A stretch of DNA of 64,000 bases from Haliclystus octoradiatus (Eukaryota > Cnidaria > Staurozoa > Stauromedusae > Haliclystidae): assembly GCA_916610825.1 (NCBI GenBank), contig OU744451.1, forward strand, positions 9,484,989 through 9,548,988, written 5' to 3'. Of this stretch, positions 12,801 to 64,000 are shown piece by piece. Both the position numbers and the translations under genes were made by a program. Every line of letters starts with the position of its first letter. Within the stretch, counting starts at the first letter, position 1. The notes below the pieces were generated by a model. It had not been told where the DNA came from, ran no database searches, and saw only the letters and a program-made list of their open reading frames with translations.

Positions 12801-15800
12801 CTGAAAATCACACATTAGTTCACAGACCCTATGATTTCAGAAAAACCTCGGGGCTGGTACGCAGGCTAGAGAAAATTAAGAAGCAAATTGATAATTTTTT
12901 AATTCACTGGTCAAACCTTAACAAAAAATTCAGAAGGAAAAGCTGACGATGTCTAAAGAATTTGGAATGTTAAACCTTTTGTCAGATACAGTCTATACAG
13001 TAGGCCTATTGATATATTCCTGTCTGGACATAGACTAGCACAATGGAACTAATTAAAGAGACACAGTGAGTACATGGTATGCCATACCCTTTGCCCCATT
13101 CTTTGAAGACTTTATCATCTTCTAGCTTCTGTTGTTCCTCTTCTTTCTTTAAAACCTTTTCGTTTGCAATGTTTCTTCGTTTTCCTTCCTTGTCGCGATA
13201 AACTGTCCCAACACCTTTACCAGAGACCGATGCTTCCATTTTACGAAACTTATCATATTCTTGTTTTTTACGTAATCTATTTTCTTTTCGCAGAGAATCT
13301 GCTGTTTGAAGACCCGATTTTTTCTCTGAAAATCAAAATCAAAATGCTATCATCAAATACATCCAATCTATTTCTCTTTGATCAATTAGAAAATATTTGA
13401 AAAAAACAAGTCTTATGAATAGTACTACAGTGCAACCAGCTCAATTAAGTACAATACAAATAAGTGAAATTCACATTTATCTGAAACCTGGCTTTGAAAC
13501 TCTATAAACTATTTCCTGGCCAAGTTCTTGTTTTCAACAATTTCAGATAACTGCAAATTTGAATAATTGCAATGAAAACCGTTAACAATTTTGACTTGCA
13601 TTTAAGAGGGTTACACTGTATATGCTATAGCAATGAAGAGACCTTTCTGCCACAGAGATTCCATTTGTATGTACAGAGCAGAGCAAACCATCTGGTTTAT
13701 AATAAATCTATCATCTATATCACAAAAATTGCTATACGTTTGCTCACACATAAAACGCCTTATCCTATTTCATCAACAAAATAGAATAAATTATATTGCA
13801 GCTCGTATATTCATTAGTTAAAGTGCACATGACACGAAAAAATGTTATCACAGATTTGAGTAGTTGAATCTAAATGATGAAGAATGGGGACAATGATTTC
13901 TTAGTTTGAAAGCGTATAAGTAGGCAAAAGATATTTAATGTTGAATCTACCCTATTTTCGATTGGTCACTTTTTCCAAACTCAGAACAATAGTAGGAATG
14001 ACAAGAGGGCTTAGGTCTACTATAGGGCAATTGAAAACTTTGGAAAATCGTATCACCATTCACACAGAATTAAAAGTTTCTAACGTCTGAGTCAGCTATG
14101 CCTACACCTTTGGGACACCTTTTCTGCTTGAAATGAGTTCATTTAACCGAGAAACACATGAGATACAAGGATATTTAATAGTTGACATAGCGTTTTTCTG
14201 TAGAGAAAGGGGCAAACACTTGTCACAAATGAAGGTGAGGTGTGCGTAGAACAGCGAGTGCAGAGTCCAAATCGCAGGCCGCGGAGGATGATTGACACAT
14301 TTTGACAGAAAAAAGTAAATCCAACAACAACAAAACCCTTGTAACTCATGTATTTCTTAATAAATTATATTTATTTCAAGCAGAAAAGGTGTCCTAGAGG
14401 TATGGGCATAGCTGACTTGGACGTTAGAATTTTTTGATTTTGCGCGAAAGAAGATACAACTTTTATATTTCTGACCTCACTTTTTTCCTATAGTAAGCCT
14501 TCTTGAATTCCGACTGTCATTCGAGTTTGGAAAATAGTGAATGAATGTAAATAGGGTAGCTTCAGCATTAAATATCTCCGCTTATACGGGTTCAAACTAA
14601 GAAATCTTTTTCAACATTCTTCATCATTTAGCTTCAGCTACCCGAATCTGTGTTGAAAAATGTTCCTGTCATGTGCACTTAACAAATCAATCAACAATTA
14701 TGATCTTCTTGTTCGAAAATGAGAATAAATATTTAAAATGCAGTTCAGTAATTAATACTACTTTGATACCCAAACATTTATAGGCCTACCATGTTACGTG
14801 ATTTATAAAGTTTGTGCCAAAATCTTTTATTTAATTCATATTTAAATAAAAATTATTTTGTCAAATATATAAAAGAAAATAGAACAACTGTTTTATCTGT
14901 TATGATCCAAATATTAGGCTTAAACTTTGTTTAAAAACCTAATATTATAAATAGGGTAGCTTCAGCATTAAATATCTCCGCTTATACGGGTTCAAACTAA
15001 GAAATCTTTTTCAACATTCTTCATCATTTAGCTTCAGCTACCCGAATCTGTGTTGAAAAATGTTCCTGTCATGTGCACTTAACAAATCAACAATTATGAT
15101 CTTCTTGTTCGAAAATGAGAATAAATATTTAAAATGCAGTTCAGTAATTAATACTACTTTGATACCCAAACATTTATAGGCCTACCATGTTACGTGATTT
15201 ATAAAGTTTGTGCCAAAATCTTTTATTTAATTCATATTTAAATAAAAATTATTTTGTCAAATATATAAAAGAAAATGGAACAACTGTTTTATCTGTTATG
15301 ATCCAAATATTAGGCTTAATATTTGTTTAAAAACTTAATATTATGAAATTAGGTTGGATCATGTCACTCGTTTTAACCATATTGTGTGAAACAATGGTGC
15401 CAAGATCTTGAGACAGTATCGATGCAGGACGCCATTGGCCAAATGATACCCATCCGGCACTCAATTTGCGCATGCACAAATCTTTTGAGGGACAACAAAG
15501 GTTTATAATAGATTCAACGCTGAACCATGATCTATTCAGACTTCAAGACTTCAAAACAATAATCAAAATCATTAATTTAAGTCAAATCAGTACGAGCAAA
15601 AACCCTGAACTAAAATAAAGAGCCCTTGTTTATTTTTGTTGCTGGTTAAATGTCGATCAAAGTCACAATTTGCAACAGGGCCAACTGACGTTACGTACGC
15701 CTCGTAGGCTATTTCCTTATCAATATCGCTTTCGAGAAGGATTGTGCTGAGATTTTTATTGTTTTTTGTGTGCCACCGTAGTTCCAAACTTATCCCCGAT

Positions 15801-21461: not shown

Positions 21462-56146
<34,685 letters not shown>

Positions 56147-57183: not shown

Positions 57184-57333
57184 ATGATGGAGCTACTTTG
57201 TGAAGAATACGATAATGTTGTGAATCGTTTGCGAACCTTCAACACGTGGCCAAATTCTGCACCAGCACTGATCAAAGATTTTGTTGAAGTTGGGTTTATT
57301 TATACAGGAGAGAAAGATAAAGGGCAATCCTGA
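57184..57333 (+). pseudogene. partial BIR (baculoviral IAP repeat) domain, stops mid-domain
   Basis: The frame gives 49 residues that include NRLRTFNTWPNSAPALIKDF and VEVGFIYTGEKDK, the N-terminal half of a BIR domain as found in inhibitor-of-apoptosis proteins (R-x-TF--WP-----L---GF-YTG--D). The zinc-binding half (C-x2-C ... H-x6-C) is missing: a TGA follows at 57331 and no GT donor sits at the expected place. It could be a decayed gene or an exon of an unusual transcript. It lies about 190 bp from the left end of the Merlin-like element. Family call is from the motif, function is not implied. Confidence 0.6.
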
Positions 57334-57521
57334 CTTCTACGGTATCAAAATCGTGTTTACGTTTTAGGAATTTTAATTGGTGTTAACAACCCACCTTTCC
57401 GAAAACATTGACGCGCTTGTAGACATCACATGTCTGTCAGCTACAACCCATTTGCTGCTGAAAAGTACCTCGTTTTCAAGCTTTGTATGTTATTAATTAT
57501 CCGTCCTCCGGTTATAGCTTG

Positions 57522-60500
57522 AAAAAAGCCGGTTTTTATGTTTTCAACTTTAAATGTCTCTCATACAAAAACGGGCGATACAATTCATTTCATTTCTTAG
57601 TATGTCATAGTCAAACGTGTATCGAAGTGATTTAAAAAAACTAGATAAAAAAATATCAAGTCTATATTTAGAAACAGCCATTTAAGTTGACCTCGATGTG
57701 ATTTCACCTCTTTTCAGATTTTGAAAAAGCCGGTTTTCTACTTTTTTTCACTTAAAATGTCTCTCATACTAAAACGGGCAAAACAATTCATTTCATTTCT
57801 TAGTATGTCATAGTCAAACGTGTATCGAAGTGATTTAAAAAAACTAGATGGAAAAATAACAAGTCTATATTTAGAAACAGCCATTTAAGTTGACCTCGGT
57901 GTGATTTCACGTCTTTTCAGATTTTGAAAAAAGCCGGTTTTTATGTTTTTCAACTTTAAATGTCTCTCATACTGAAACGAGAGATACAATTCACTTCATT
58001 TCTTAGTATGTCATAGTCAAACGTGTATCGAAGTGATTTAAAAAAACTAGATGGAAAAATATCAAGTCTATATTTAGAAACAGCCATTTAAGTTGACCTC
58101 GGTGTGATTTCACGTCTTTTCAGATTTTGAAAAAAGCCGGTTTTTATGTTTTTCAACTTTAAATGTCTCTCATACTGAAACGAGAGATACAATTCACTTC
58201 ATTTCTTAGTATGTCATAGCCAAACGTGTATCGAAGTGATTTAAAAAAACTAGATGGAAAAATATCAAGTCTATATTTAGAAACAGCCATTTAAGTTGAC
58301 CTAAGCGTGATTTCACGTCTTTTCAGATTTTGAAAAAGGCCGGTTTTCTACTTTCTCAAGTTTAATTATTTCTCATACTAAAACAGGCGATACAATTCAC
58401 TTCATTTCTTAGTATGTCATATTCAAACGTGTATCGAAGTGATTTAAAAAAACTAAATAAAAAAATATCAAGTCTATATTTAGAAACAGCCATTTAAGTT
58501 GACCTCGGTGTGATTTCACCTCTTCAGATTTTGAAAAAAGCCGGTTTTCTACTTTTTTTCACTTTAAATGTCTCTCATACTAAAACGGGCGATACAATTC
58601 ACTTCATTTCTTAGTATGTCATAGTCAAACGTGTATCGAAGTGATTTAAAAAAACTAGATGGAAAAATATCAAGTCTATATTTAGAAACAGCCATTTAAG
58701 TTGACCTAAGTGTGATTTCACGTCTTTTCAGATTTTGAAAAAGGCCGGTTTTCTACTTTCTCAAGTTTAATTATTTCTCATACTAAAACGGGCGTTACAA
58801 TTCACTTCATTTCTTAGTATGTCATAGTCAAACGTGTATCGAAGTGATTTAAAAAAACTAGATGGAAAAATATCAAGTCTATATTTAGAAACAGCCATTT
58901 AAGTTGACCTAAGTGTGATTTCACGTCTTTTCAGATTTTGAAAAAGGCCGGTTTTCTACTTTCTCAAGTTTAATTATTTCTCATACTAAAACGGGCGATA
59001 CAATTCACTTCATTTCTTAGTATGTCATAGTCAAACGTGTATCGAAGTGATTTAAAAAAACTAGATGGAAAAATATCAAGTCTATATTTAGAAACAGCCA
59101 TTTAAGTTGACCTAAGTGTGATTTCACGTCTTTTCAGATTTTGAAAAAGGCCGGTTTTCTACTTTCTCAAGTTTAATTATTTCTCATACTAAAACGGGCG
59201 ATACAATTCACTTCATTTCTTAGTATGTCATAGTCAAACGTGTATCGAAGTGATTTAAAAAAACTAGATGGAAAAATATCAAGTCTATATTTAGAAACAG
59301 CCATTTAAGTTGACCTAAGTGTGATTTCACGTCTTTTCAGATTTTGAAAAAGGCCGGTTTTCTACTTTCTCAAGTTTAATTATTTCTCATACTAAAACGG
59401 GCGATACAATTCACTTCATTTCTTAGTATGTCATAGTCAAACGTGTATCGAAGTGATTTAAAAAAACTAGATGGAAAAATATCAAGTCTATATTTAGAAA
59501 CAGCCATTTAAGTTGACCTAAGTGTGATTTCACGTCTTTTCAGATTTTGAAAAAAGCCGGTTTTTATGTTTTTCAACTTTAAATGTCTCTCATACTAAAA
59601 CGGGCGATACAATTCACTTCATTTCTTAGTATGTCATAGTCAAACGTGTATCAAAGTGATTTAAAAAAACTAGATGGAAAAATATCAAGTCTATATTTAG
59701 AAACAGCCATTTAAGTTGACCTAAGTGTGATTTCACGTTTTTTCAGATTTTGAAAAAGGCCGGTTTTCTACTTTCTCAAGTTTAATTATTTCTCATACTA
59801 AAACGGGCGATACAATTCACTTCATTTCTTAGTATGTAATAGTCAAACGTGTATCGAAGTGATTTAAAAAAACTAGATGGAAAAATATCTAGTCTATATT
59901 TAGAAACAGCCATTTAAGTTGACCTAAGTGTGATTTCACGTCTTTTCAGATTTTGAAAAAAGCCGGTTTTTATGTTTTTCAACTTTAAATGTCTCTCATA
60001 CTAAAACGGGAGATACAATTCACTTCATTTCTTAGTATGTCATAGTCAAACGTGTATCGAAGTGATTTAAAAAAACTAGATGGAAAAATATCAAGTCTAT
60101 ATTTAGAAACAGCCATTTAAGTTGACCTAAGTGTGATTTCACGTTTTTTCAGATTTTGAAAAAGGCCGGTTTTCTACTTTCTCAAGTTTAATTATTTCTC
60201 ATACTAAAACGGGCGATACAATTCACTTCATTTCTTAGTATGTCATAGTCAAACGTGTATCGAAGTGATTTAAAAAAACTAGATGGAAAAATATCAAGTC
60301 TATATTTAGAAACAGCCATTTAAGTTGACCTAAGTGTGATTTCACGTCTTTTCAGATTTTGAAAAAAGCCGGTTTTTATGTTTTTCAACTTTAAATGTCT
60401 CTCATACTAAAACGGGAGATACAATTCACTTCATTTCTTAGTATGTCATAGTCAAACGTGTATCGAAGTGATTTAAAAAACTAGATGGAAAAATATCAAG

Positions 60501-61015
60501 TCTATATTTAGAAACAGCCATTTAAGTTGACATCGGTGTGATTTCACGTCTTTTCAGATTTTGAAAAAAGCCGGTTTTTATGTTTTTCAACTTTAAATGT
60601 CTCTCATACTAAAACGGGAGATACAATTCACTTCATTTCTTAGTATGTCATAGTCAAACGTGTATCGAAGTGATTTAAAAAAACTAGATGGAAAAATATC
60701 AAGTCTATATTTAGAAACAGCCATTTAAGTTGACCTAAGTGTGATTTCACGTCTTTTCAGATTTTGAAAAAGGCCGGTTTTCTACTTTCTCAAGTTTAAT
60801 TATTTCTCATACTAAAACGGGCGATACAATTCACTTCATTTCTTAGTATGTCATAGTCAAACGTGTATCGAAGTGATTTAAAAAAACTAGATGAAAAAAT
60901 ATCAAGTCTATATTTAGAAACAGCCATTTAAGTTGACCTAGGTGTGATTTCACGTCTTTTCAGATTTTGAAAATAGCCGGTTTTTATGTTTTTCAACTTT
61001 AAATGTCTCTCAAAT
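57522..61015 (+). repeat. 203-bp tandem repeat array, about 17 units (left arm)
   Basis: The word GTGTATCGAAGTGATTTAAA recurs every 203 bp (202 twice): ATCGAAG at 57621, 57824, 58027, 58230, 58433, 58635, 58838, 59041, 59244, 59447, 59650 (one change), 59853, 60056, 60259, 60462, 60664, 60867. Two main unit forms differ in one segment: GGCCGGTTTTCTACTTTCTC and AGCCGGTTTTTATGTTTTTC. A more diverged unit follows in the same register (61070). No coding potential. Confidence 0.95.
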
Positions 61016-61239
61016 TAGGACGATGTGTGCCGATGACCTGATACCACTCTACATGGCTCTTACATGTGTATCGGATACAATTAAAAAGATTTGATGAGAA
61101 CATATCTTGCATTTATTTAGATACACCCATTTAAGTTGATATTGGGGGTATTTCAGGGTTTTCAAAATGCCCATTTTTCAATTTCTTCAATTTCTAGTTC
61201 TTTCAAATGAGAACGAGGCTGGAAAATCATTAGATATCA

Positions 61240-61562
61240 GTAGATATAGTTCTTAGATGTATATCAAATTTAAATAAAAAGGTTCATGGTAGTATGCACG
61301 AAATGTTATCACACATACTTAGAGCCACTTACCATATCTTGCTTACTTCATTAAACTGTAGGTGTTGTTGATGTTTATTGTGCAATTTTGTGGGTGTCAG
61401 TACTGTGATAGATATATTGATGGATATATTGCATGAAGTTGTGTAACATTCTTGGCACGTTTGATGAAATCTGATCTCTACGTGGTGGATGTTGCTTAAC
61501 AATCCTAGCTTTAAGACCACTCACTCATTTATTTCTATCTGTCTGTCGGTGAAGACGTCAAA
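61240..61562 (+). other. transposase leader region
   Basis: Unique sequence between the inner arm and the transposase ATG; should contain its promoter. Nothing recognisable. Confidence 0.4.
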
Positions 61563-62462
61563 ATGAATATGTATGAGATGTTCGTGATTATCTCGACCAT
61601 TGAAAATACTTTGGCCTTTTTAAGGTCGAAAAAATTAATCAGAAGACAGCCACCGGACTGCCCTGATTGTGCCCTACCAATGAAGGAGTATAAAAGAGCA
61701 GATATTTCAGATGGATATACGTGGAGGTGCAGAACCCATAGAAACAGGAAGATTTCAATTCGTGATGGATCGTACTTCGCAAAGTCAAGATTGAAACTTG
61801 GGGAGCTCATTCATCTTATGCATTTATGGTCAATGAACATACCTATACATACGCAAGTGGGGTATTCAACTACAAGTGAACGTTCAGTGATACAATGGAA
61901 CTCTTACATGCGGGACATTTGTTCCCATGAGCTTCTGACGAATCCTATCATTTTGGGGGGGCCTGACAGAACCGTGGAAATTGACGAGTCCCTCATGTCT
62001 AAACGGAAATACCATAGAGGACGATTAAGACGACAGGAATGGGTATTTGGTATGTATGAACGTGAACGAAAGATCGGTTTCTTTGAATATGTCACAGATC
62101 GTTCTGCACCGAGTCTGCTCCCAATCATAATGGCAAACATTGCTCCAGGTACCAAAATACATTCGGACGAATGGCGAGCTTACAACCAAATTAGCAATTT
62201 AAATGTATTACCACCTTTCACTCACGACACTGTAAACCACAGCGTCAATTTCGTAGATCCGATCACAGGATGTCATACAAATAATGTGGAGTGCTTTTGG
62301 AAAAATGCTAAGCGCAAAAAAGCATACATGTCAGGTACAACTAGAGCTATGTTACCAGGTCATTTAGATGAGTTCATGTGGCGAGGGATCTATGGCAGAA
62401 CGCATGCACTTGCATTCGAAAATGTCATAGATCAACTTGCTGCATGGTACCCAACTCCCTAA
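61563..62462 (+). CDS. Merlin-type (IS1595/ISXO2-like) DDE transposase
   Basis: Complete 299-residue frame without introns. N-terminal zinc ribbon: C33-x2-C36 ... C56-x2-H59 (CPDCALPMKEYK..RCRTH), then ISIRDGSYFAKSRLKLGEL, the helix-turn-helix-like segment usual in this family. Catalytic triad in RNase H fold: D141 in VEIDESLMSKRKYHRG, D202 in IHSDEWRAY, E243 in HTNNVECFWKNAK. It is the length and layout of bacterial IS1016/IS1595 transposases and of animal Merlin enzymes, which cut and paste the element by binding its ends. All catalytic and zinc-binding residues are present, so the enzyme may be functional. Flanked by inverted 203-bp repeat arms. Confidence 0.93.
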   Translation: MNMYEMFVIISTIENTLAFLRSKKLIRRQPPDCPDCALPMKEYKRADISDGYTWRCRTHRNRKISIRDGSYFAKSRLKLGELIHLMHLWSMNIPIHTQVGYSTTSERSVIQWNSYMRDICSHELLTNPIILGGPDRTVEIDESLMSKRKYHRGRLRRQEWVFGMYERERKIGFFEYVTDRSAPSLLPIIMANIAPGTKIHSDEWRAYNQISNLNVLPPFTHDTVNHSVNFVDPITGCHTNNVECFWKNAKRKKAYMSGTTRAMLPGHLDEFMWRGIYGRTHALAFENVIDQLAAWYPTP

Positions 62463-63029
62463 AATGAACTGGTAATATAGCCCTATCGCCGGGCCTGGCT
62501 GGCATGTATCCTTTTTTGATCTCCATGCTATTTGTAGACAAATTTCTGTGGTTCGTGACACTGTTGTAATTCTGACCCATTATCCGAATGTATTTTTGGC
62601 GTTTGCCATTGGGAGTAGGCTCCGAAACCGATCTTTCGTTTGTTCATCCATTTCTGGCATTTTGATTCTTTAATGATTATTGTATTTCCAATTAGACTGA
62701 ATGGCATACTCTTTTTCCATGATTCTGTGTGACCTTTTCAAAATTATAAGATATTCAGGAGTTCATGGGTACCAATTCGTTGCTCTTATCAATCAATCAA
62801 CATTATATACATAGAATACATCCTTTTTCTATATTTTAGAGCTCCATATACATGTATTGATAAAACATTGTATTACTGAACGTTCTTGTATTAATTCATT
62901 ATCAATTTCCACTTACGTATGTATAAACCCAGTAGCCCATATTTGTATAAGTATTGATGACTCCCCATCAATAATTTTAACTTGACTTTGTGACGTATTG
63001 AACTATCATGAATTGAAATCTTCTTGTAT
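62463..63029. other. transposon interior after the transposase
   Basis: AT-rich, without further frames or recognisable repeats. Confidence 0.4.
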
Positions 63030-63172
63030 ATTAACCATTATGCACCTTCATGTATATCCGGAAAAATATATGCAATTTTATACTCCTTCATTGGTAGGGC
63101 ACAATCAGTGCAATCCGGTGGCTGTCTTCTAATTAAATTTTTTGACCTTAAAAAGGCCAAACTGTACGCATG
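63030..63172 (-). pseudogene. inverted, decayed 5' fragment of the transposase gene
   Basis: On the minus strand, TTTGGCCTTTTTAAGGTC... followed by AGAAGACAGCCACCGGATTG and TGATTGTGCCCTACCAATGA matches 61610-61690 of the intact gene (codons about 16-45), with a first Cys codon region still readable; weaker similarity continues to about 63030 (GGATATACATGAAGGTGC against GGATATACGTGGAGGTGC). Several substitutions, a CPDC to CTDC change and small gaps show it is not functional. It places the right arm as an inverted duplicate of the left side of the element, reaching into the coding sequence. Confidence 0.8.
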
Positions 63173-63412
63173 TATATCAATGATTCAACAATTATATATA
63201 TAAAGAAATAATATTGAATGATTTTTTTATCTCTTAACATCTATGCATGATAACCCATCTCTTGAATCTCAATACAACTGCATATTTGATCAAAAATGAT
63301 ACTCCATGTACTTTCACAAACTTTTTTGAACTAAATCTAGCGATATCTGATAATTTCCCAGCCTCGTTCTCATTTGAAAGACGTACATGTCAGACAAAGT
63401 GAAGATTGGCAT

Positions 63413-64000
63413 TTTGAAAACCCTGAAATACCCCCAATATCAACTTAAATGGGTGTATCTAAATAAATGCAAGATATGTTCTCATCAAATCTTTTTAATT
63501 GTATCCGATACACATGTAAGAGCCATGTAGAGTGGTATCAGGTCATCGGCACACATCGTACTAATTTGAGAGACATTTAAAGTTGAAAAACATAAAAACC
63601 GGCTATTTTCAAAATCTGAAAAGACGTGAAATCACACCTAGGTCAACTTAAATGGCTGTTTCTAAATATAGACTTGATATTTTTTCATCTAGTTTTTTTA
63701 AATCACTTCGATACACGTTTGACTATGACATACTAAGAAATGAAGTGAATTGTATCGCCCGTTTTAGTATAAGAAATATTTAAACTTGAGAAAGTAGAAA
63801 ACCGGCTTTTTTCAAAATCTGAAAAGAGGTGAAATCACACCGAGGTCAACTTAAATGGCTGTTTCTAAATATAGACTTGATATTTTTCCATCTAGTTTTT
63901 TTAAATCACTTCGATACACGTTTGGCTATGACATACTAAGAAATGAAGTGAATTGTATCTCCCGTTTTAGTATGAGAGACATTTAAAGTTGAAAAACATA
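63413..64000 (-). repeat. 203-bp repeat array, right arm (continues past the window)
   Basis: Reverse complement of the left arm: the diverged innermost unit, then TTCGATACACGTTTGACTATGACATACTAAG repeated at about 203-bp spacing up to the last base of the window. About 2.9 units are visible. Confidence 0.95.

What the first reader, a model, noticed from the sequence alone, without database searches (positions are those of the whole stretch)
57522..64000. Merlin-type transposon with kilobase inverted arms made of a 203-bp satellite
Seen: an intact ISXO2-type transposase lies between inverted arms, the left about 3.6 kb and built of about 17 tandem units of 203 bp, the right beginning as its mirror image. 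Known: Merlin elements usually have short terminal inverted repeats; foldback-like elements with repeat-filled arms are known from other superfamilies (FB, Galileo). Inference: this is a foldback-architecture Merlin, perhaps using the repeat units as multiple transposase-binding sites, and a possible seed of satellite DNA.
Basis: partly seen in the sequence, partly recalled or inferred. Interest (0 to 1): 0.8.

Follow-up and report, generated by a model that had tools for sequence, protein, structure and literature searches.

The report
Merlin transposon with satellite-filled inverted arms
A jumping gene of the Merlin type, still carrying what looks like an intact transposase, has huge mirror-image ends made of a 203-letter satellite repeat, and copies with such ends have moved around this animal's genome, which lets one ask how such 'foldback' transposons arise and work.

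Summary
Confirmed, and extended beyond the window. The complete element is C7:9542311-9553461 of the window's own 262-Mb assembly (window 57323 to 68473-equivalent; 11,151 bp). It has a perfect 8-bp target duplication (AGATAAAG), GG tips and an outer 196-bp non-satellite cap identical at both ends. The arms hold 17 (left) and 23 (right) units of 203 bp. Between them lies an open 299-aa IS1595/Merlin-type transposase with its DDE residues. Of 13 copies with both tips found, 8 have an 8-bp duplication (5 perfect, 3 with one mismatch) and 5 have none. Seven fetched copies lack the core and are only cap, units, inverted units, cap. One 33-base unit variant occurs 77 times genome-wide, 77 of 77 in ten capped elements. 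So this is a foldback-architecture Merlin encoding its own transposase. The sequence right of the transposase is a decayed inverted copy of it, so the element probably arose by inverted duplication. Units as transposase-binding sites are unsupported: cap and unit are no more alike than shuffles. No free array of that variant was found. Closest known: Tetris, Galileo, Tm1, assigned to other superfamilies.

The parts
57315..57322 (.). left target-site duplication AGATAAAG; the identical 8 bases follow the right tip at C7:9553462-9553469, outside the window
57323..57518 (+). outer cap of the left arm: 196 bp, not part of the satellite, tip GGCAATCCTGACTTCTACGG; the outermost 222 bp are identical at both ends
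57519..61012 (+). left-arm satellite array, 17 units of 203 bp
61011..61178 (+). diverged inner unit (67% to the 203-bp unit); mirrored at 98% in the right arm
61179..61295 (+). further diverged unit-like stretch at the inner edge of the left arm
   Evidence: similarity of this stretch (core 1-117) to units of a related element
61563..62462 (+). open reading frame of 299 aa: Merlin/IS1595-type transposase; residues D141, D202, E243 conserved
62463..63401 (-). decayed inverted copy of the 5' region and transposase ORF (best piece 62866-63161 against 61610-61897, 76%)
63402..64000 (-). right arm, first 599 bp in the window; it continues to C7:9553461 (window-equivalent 68473) with 23 units of 203 bp and the cap

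Best explanation
This is a Merlin-superfamily DNA transposon with foldback architecture that encodes its own transposase. Anatomy from outside in: 8-bp target duplication, GG tip, 196-bp cap, array of 203-bp satellite units, a few diverged inner units, then a core with one open transposase and the decayed inverted relic of a second. Shown: ends, duplications, arms, copies and their unit numbers. Inferred from the family: the DDE transposase cuts at the tips in the caps and inserts the whole piece at a staggered 8-bp cut. Inferred: core-less palindromic copies arise by internal deletions between the two arrays and are moved in trans by the same transposase. Inferred: unit number drifts in each arm by unequal exchange, including a six-unit higher-order repeat in the right arm, so the arms are length-flexible passengers or helpers rather than a fixed structure. 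Inferred with good support: the two-sided structure goes back to an inverted duplication of one half (arm plus transposase), after which one transposase copy decayed.
For: Transposase: Pfam DDE_Tnp_IS1595 6.6e-17, NCBIfam IS1595 above its cut-off; 24 homologs found, the four best at 45-47% identity, named ones from Octopus, Caligus and Heterodera; catalytic D141, D202, E243 conserved over 13 sequences apart from gaps. Ends: perfect AGATAAAG duplication, GG tips, 222 bp perfect outer repeat. Family: the cap has 42 matches and the 27-base tip 49 (up to 2 mismatches) against 0 for the reversed-pattern control. Duplications in 8 of 13 copies with both tips. Core-less copies: 7 of 9 fully fetched copies. 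Seven different centre junctions in unit register: six and C8b. Six-unit period in the right arm: mean identity 97.0% at lag 6 against 92.9% and 92.8% at lags 5 and 7. Inverted relic: six collinear inverted segments, best 76% over 304 columns at E 1.4e-52; five exceed the best of 50 shuffles (28.3 bits). An older relative at C8:3005439-3012271, transposase 61% identical with five stops, has the same plan with 203- and 193-bp arrays and shares the first 14 bases of the tip.
Against: No target duplication in 5 of 13 copies, including the second open-transposase copy on C10, nor in the older C8 relative; the decay or recombination offered for this is untested, and no reciprocal partner flanks were found beyond one low-complexity near match. 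Transposase loci at C1:24.12 (70% identical) and C10:12.53 (66%, fragment) showed no 203-bp array within the stretches fetched. The recent C7-C10 comparison gives only weak purifying selection (dN/dS 0.58 on 14 changes); C7-C11 gives 0.87; the older C7-C1:24.12 pair gives 0.09, with saturated dS. No activity was shown. Terminal repeats of 3.9 and 5.1 kb lie far outside the 24-462 bp quoted for Merlin in PMC8101967.
Confidence: 0.92

Rival explanations
1. An ordinary Merlin inserted into a pre-existing block of 203-bp satellite, so that the arms are just host satellite.
For: The array is satellite-like, with a higher-order repeat in one arm.
Against: The satellite lies inside the element: identical caps and an 8-bp duplication lie outside the arrays; the arrays point in opposite directions on the two sides; 77 of 77 exact copies of one unit variant lie in ten capped elements.
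Confidence: 0.02
2. The foldback structure belongs to another superfamily (for example Mutator, the usual guess for foldbacks with 8-10 bp duplications), and the Merlin gene is a passenger.
For: Tetris and Tm1, with similar plans, are placed in Mutator (PMC4079207, PMC3169594, passages). In this genome a Merlin fragment has been caught inside another TIR family at C11.
Against: GG tips and 8-bp duplications are what is reported for Merlin (PMC8101967, passages); the older C8 relative with a 61% transposase keeps both the plan and the first 14 tip bases; Pfam returns only the IS1595 domain for the ORF. At C11 the outer ends are a different sequence with a 9-bp repeat, so that case looks different.
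Confidence: 0.05
3. Assembly artefact: the inverted arms were created by mis-joining.
For: Long inverted repeats are hard to assemble; reads were not available.
Against: The arms differ in unit number (17 and 23) and in unit order, and several independent loci with target duplications have the same plan.
Confidence: 0.02
4. The sequence right of the transposase is an independent insertion of a Merlin fragment, or two elements inserted tail to tail, rather than an inverted duplication of one half.
For: Only about 76% identity in the best piece; loss of the middle cannot be reconstructed.
Against: Six inverted segments are collinear across the whole half and run into the 98% inner unit and the identical caps; no cap or tip match lies in the middle of the element. 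C10 has the same relic and C5 keeps that part of the core.
Confidence: 0.12

Closest known systems
Merlin superfamily (Feschotte 2004, not read, known through PMC8101967; Lopes et al. 2021 = PMC8101967, passages and part 1 of section 10 read)
   Same: IS1595-type DDE transposase, GG tips, 8-9 bp target duplications; internal tandem repeats reported in Symbiodinium Merlins (52 bp, 163 bp) and stated for several Repbase Merlins
   Different: Terminal repeats are quoted there as 24-462 bp; here 3.9 and 5.1 kb, filled with 17 and 23 satellite units and capped by a non-satellite outer domain
Tetris of Drosophila virilis (PMC4079207, passages and section 10 read)
   Same: Very similar plan: outer flanking domain, tandem repeats of about 220 bp, inner domain, middle; 8-10 bp duplications; unit number varies
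   Different: Tetris has no transposase and is placed in Mutator by inference; its terminal repeats reach 1,735 bp; its flanking domain and repeats share 37 bp, whereas cap and unit here share nothing above shuffles; Tetris seeded a satellite, which was not seen here
Galileo (P superfamily; PMC3573991 passages, PMC3688188 abstract)
   Same: Long internally repetitive terminal repeats, independent unit numbers in the two ends, transposase-less copies, copies without matching duplications, inverted recruitment of inner sequence into the ends
   Different: Other transposase superfamily, 7-bp duplications, terminal repeats up to about 1.26 kb; multiple transposase-binding sites shown by experiment there, not here
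Tm1 of root-knot nematodes (Mutator/Foldback; PMC3169594, passages)
   Same: Composite terminal repeats with tandem motifs; coding and MITE-like forms
   Different: 9-bp duplications, about 14-bp motifs, Mutator/Foldback according to its title
IS1595/IS1016 bacterial insertion sequences (NCBIfam)
   Same: Transposase domain and an 8-bp duplication (the latter from PMC8101967)
   Different: Small bacterial elements with short ends (recalled)

Membership tests
Merlin superfamily | DDE_Tnp_IS1595 transposase domain | tested here: met
   Pfam 6.6e-17, NCBIfam 2.1e-22
Merlin superfamily | conserved catalytic DDE residues | tested here: met
   D141 and E243 invariant, D202 in at least 90% of 13 aligned sequences
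Merlin superfamily | terminal 5'-GG | tested here: met
   GGCAATCC tips at both ends
Merlin superfamily | 8- or 9-bp target duplication | tested here: met
   perfect 8 bp for this copy; 5 perfect and 3 one-mismatch of 13 copies, none in 5
Merlin superfamily | no Zn_Tnp_IS1595 domain | tested here: met
   only DDE_Tnp_IS1595 reported at E 0.001; a CxxC...CxxH pattern is nevertheless visible at the N-terminus
Merlin superfamily | terminal repeats of 24-462 bp (descriptive range quoted in PMC8101967) | tested here: not met
   arms of about 3.9 and 5.1 kb; treated as a variant, since the range describes the members known in 2004
Foldback-type architecture | long terminal inverted repeats filled with tandem units of variable number | tested here: met
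   17/23 here; 13/5, 11/11, 6/4, 4/7, 5/3, 9/8 in other fetched copies; C15a and C15b have 4 units on one side and only a partial unit on the other
Foldback-type architecture | the strand folds back into a stem in the cell | not testable with these tools
   follows from the inverted arms; no experiment
Galileo-like use of units as multiple transposase-binding sites | a shared motif in the end and in the units | tested here: not met
   cap-unit local alignment score 19, reached by 147 of 300 shuffled caps; a short motif could be missed
Mutator superfamily | Mutator-type transposase | tested here: not met
   the only Pfam hit of the ORF is DDE_Tnp_IS1595
Satellite-seeding transposon (Tetris-like) | units amplified as arrays outside the element | tested here: inconclusive
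   77 of 77 exact matches of one 33-base variant lie in ten capped elements; the list for the whole unit is capped (348 matches, part listed) and collapsed satellite may be missing from the assembly

The most novel reading that the evidence does not exclude
The element was born as a full palindrome by an inverted self-copying step that doubled one half (tip, satellite arm and transposase). The same kind of step, copying one arm onto the other during transposition or gap repair, still regenerates the mirror symmetry, while the satellite acts as a length-flexible landing strip for it. Foldback transposons would then be a growth form that any DDE superfamily, Merlin included, can enter, rather than a lineage.
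Probability: 0.25. Interest if true: 0.75.

Novelty: new variant of a known kind. Interest (0 to 1): 0.56.

Why it matters
Most foldback transposons are said to belong to Mutator, and Tetris was placed there from its plan and 8-10 bp duplications without a transposase (PMC4079207, passages). A Merlin with the same plan, an open transposase and matching ends shows that the plan occurs in a further superfamily and that plan plus duplication size does not identify the superfamily. It also gives a natural series of arms (from a partial unit to 23 units in the copies counted, and one copy with none) to test what satellite arms do, and an origin by inverted duplication that can be studied. In seven literature searches of an open-access library I saw no foldback Merlin in the listings; most subscription papers are not in it, and Repbase itself was not searched.

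Tried and rejected
Satellite-insertion and assembly-artefact readings were rejected on the caps, target duplications and unequal arms. I first took the C11:5.62 copy for a possible one-armed ancestor. It is instead a Merlin fragment inside a different, abundant 131-bp end pair with a 9-bp repeat outside, so it was dropped.

Search for a transposase-binding motif shared by cap and unit: nothing above shuffles. The planned alignment of units across subfamilies kept only six units; those of the C8 relative were not cut by the anchor, so its conservation result is not used. Test for arm-to-arm homogenisation within an element: the best match in the own opposite arm is not consistently higher than in other elements (C7 98.73 and 98.73; C2b 99.41 and 99.56; C2a 98.98 and 98.43; C10 95.88 and 98.50; C1a 96.94 and 99.08; C2c 97.15 and 98.52; C10b 98.70 and 99.35). 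This counts against the self-copying maintenance reading. Search for reciprocal target duplications among copies without one: only one low-complexity near match. PDB sequence search: no match. The species was not identified: the search with a zinc-finger ORF gave only distant MTF1-like and other zinc-finger proteins, the named ones among the listed rows mostly from animals.

Rows dropped before counts: C15b (left tip truncated by 14 bases) and the older C8:3.00 relative are not among the 13 copies of the duplication count; solitary tips were not counted.
Full report
Where it is. The window is C7:9484989-9548988 of an unnamed 261.9-Mb assembly in 33 contigs. The named relatives of a zinc-finger ORF in the window, among the 120 rows listed, are mostly animal proteins; the species was not identified.

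The observation. The 203-bp array at 57519-61012 (17.2 copies, 94%) and the mirrored array beginning in the right part of the window are real. The ORF at 61563-62462 encodes 299 residues with an IS1595-type transposase domain. Its homologs include proteins from Octopus, Caligus and Heterodera; 24 proteins were found at E 0.001 or better. The catalytic residues D141, D202 and E243 are conserved in an alignment of 13 sequences. In the own genome 41 matches to the protein were scored. Two of the 41 (C7 and C10) cover residues 1-299 without a stop.

The complete element. Adding the next stretch of the contig completes the right arm: 23 units in all, then a cap identical to that on the left. The element runs from C7:9542311 (window 57323) to C7:9553461, 11,151 bp. 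It is bounded by GGCAATCC tips and the 8-bp duplication AGATAAAG; the outermost 222 bp are identical at both ends. The cap, 196 bp, is not part of the satellite.

Other copies. The cap has 42 matches in the genome and the 27-base tip 49 with up to two mismatches, against 0 for the reversed control. For 13 copies with both tips I compared the flanking 8 bases. Five are perfect (C7, C8:10.70, C2:38.52, C2:15.80, C10:8.31). Three have one mismatch (C2:36.32, C1:32.95 and the 247-bp copy on C5:23.69). Five have no duplication (C10:16.59, C15:44, C8:5.88, C5:17.76, C6:10.63). At a chance rate of 25 in 65,536 per pair (my arithmetic), 8 of 13 with at most one mismatch is far above expectation. The C10 copy, 6,707 bp, has 13 and 5 units and the second open transposase, but no duplication.

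Core-less copies. Of nine copies fetched whole, seven have no core (C2b, C1a, C15a, C15b, C2c, C10b, C2a) and are cap, units, inverted units, cap. C15a and C15b are near mirror copies of each other (1373 of 1386 columns) and are not counted as independent. For the other five and C15a the centre was located, and the six lie at different places in the unit; C8b gives a seventh. This is what independent internal deletions between the two arrays would give. The 247-bp C5 copy has the cap and a short inverted tip but no unit, so units are not needed for a copy to persist. Whether it lost them before or after inserting is unknown.

Arms as evolving satellite. Unit numbers vary between arms and copies. 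In the right arm of C7 unit identity peaks at a lag of six (97.0%, neighbours 92.9% and 92.8%; 95.8% at lag 12), a six-unit higher-order repeat; the left arm has no such peak. One exact 33-base unit variant has 77 matches in the genome, 77 of 77 in ten loci that carry a cap. The search with the whole unit gave 348 matches, of which only part is listed. The listed rows fall in 14 places: 13 have a cap match, and the one on C11 has a partial cap.

Origin. The region right of the transposase (62463-63401) aligns in inverted orientation with the 5' region and transposase, in six collinear segments; the best is 76% identical over 304 columns (E 1.4e-52), and five exceed the best of 50 shuffles. Left-right identity tends to rise from the core outward: 76% in the longest core segment and 69-87% in shorter ones, 89% at 61199-61252, 98% in the inner diverged unit, 100% in the cap. 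No cap or tip match lies in the middle. I infer that one half was duplicated in inverted orientation and that one transposase copy then decayed. Galileo also recruits inner sequence into its ends by inverted duplication (PMC3573991, passages). Whether the arms are still corrected against each other is open: unit similarity within an element is not consistently higher than between elements.

Age of the plan. An older relative at C8:3005439-3012271 has a transposase 61% identical and broken by five stops, outer 203-bp arrays (5.2 and 5.0 copies), inner 193-bp arrays (4.9 and 7.8 copies), and the same first 14 tip bases; it has no duplication. A palindromic relative with 192-bp units lies at C1:30883894-30888533, with no transposase match inside. 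A further non-autonomous group appears as 14 equally scoring places; three fetched stretches show related units and part of the relic. Transposase loci at C1:24.12 and C10:12.53 show no 203-bp array in the fetched stretches. So the plan is shared by at least two transposase lineages but was not seen at every related locus.

Selection. Nei-Gojobori dN/dS is 0.09 for C7 against C1:24.12 (252 codons, dS saturated), 0.58 for C7 against C10 (14 changes), and 0.87 for C7 against each of two C11 pieces. Long-term constraint is indicated; recent constraint is not shown.

How it works. Shown: structure, ends, duplications, copies. From the family: a DDE transposase acting at the tips and an 8-bp staggered insertion. 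Inferred: mobilisation of core-less copies in trans, array drift by unequal exchange, origin by inverted duplication. Not supported: units as copies of an end-binding site (score 19; 147 of 300 shuffles reach it).

Place among known things. Merlin membership tests are met except the quoted length range of the ends. Tandem repeats inside Merlins were already reported (PMC8101967, passages). The plan matches Tetris closely (PMC4079207, passages and section 10) and resembles Galileo (PMC3573991 passages; PMC3688188 abstract) and Tm1 (PMC3169594 passages). The only paper found by the joint search for foldback, Merlin, transposase and inverted repeats is a plant review (listing only). I therefore rate it a new variant of a known kind.

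Noticed in passing
window 45408-50741: A second palindromic element: inverted arms that include A-rich and T-rich stretches of about 0.5 kb and a 64-bp tandem pair, tips TATGGTGGCCCATTGTTCTC, the bases CCAGAG outside both ends, no ORF of 70 aa or more from a common start codon.
   Followed up: partly
G000 C11:5620870-5624639 (L030, L031): A Merlin fragment (transposase 93% identical in two frames, one 8-unit arm, partial cap) sits inside a different 131-bp end pair with the 9-base repeat TTATTTCTT outside. These ends have 40 listed matches (217 candidates, 40 scored), so it looks like capture by an abundant unrelated TIR family.
   Followed up: partly
G000 C6:6448568-6450618 (L032, L033): Tandem array of 387-bp units, 5.3 copies, made of the 5' region and N-terminal part of a Merlin transposase.
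   Followed up: no
G000 C15:44066-45447 and 48411-49791 (L081, L082): Two core-less copies in opposite orientation 3 kb apart, near mirror images of each other (1373 of 1386 columns); one lacks its outer 14 bases.
   Followed up: partly
G000 C10:8314118-8316425 (L084): Core-less copy whose right end carries a second, truncated cap (157 bases) in tandem, with a perfect duplication outside the outer one.
   Followed up: no
window 61563-61760: The transposase N-terminus has a CxxC...CxxH pattern, also seen with variations in several homologs, although Pfam reports no zinc domain there.
   Followed up: no
window 14548-15349: A 396-bp unit present twice in tandem at 97%.
   Followed up: no
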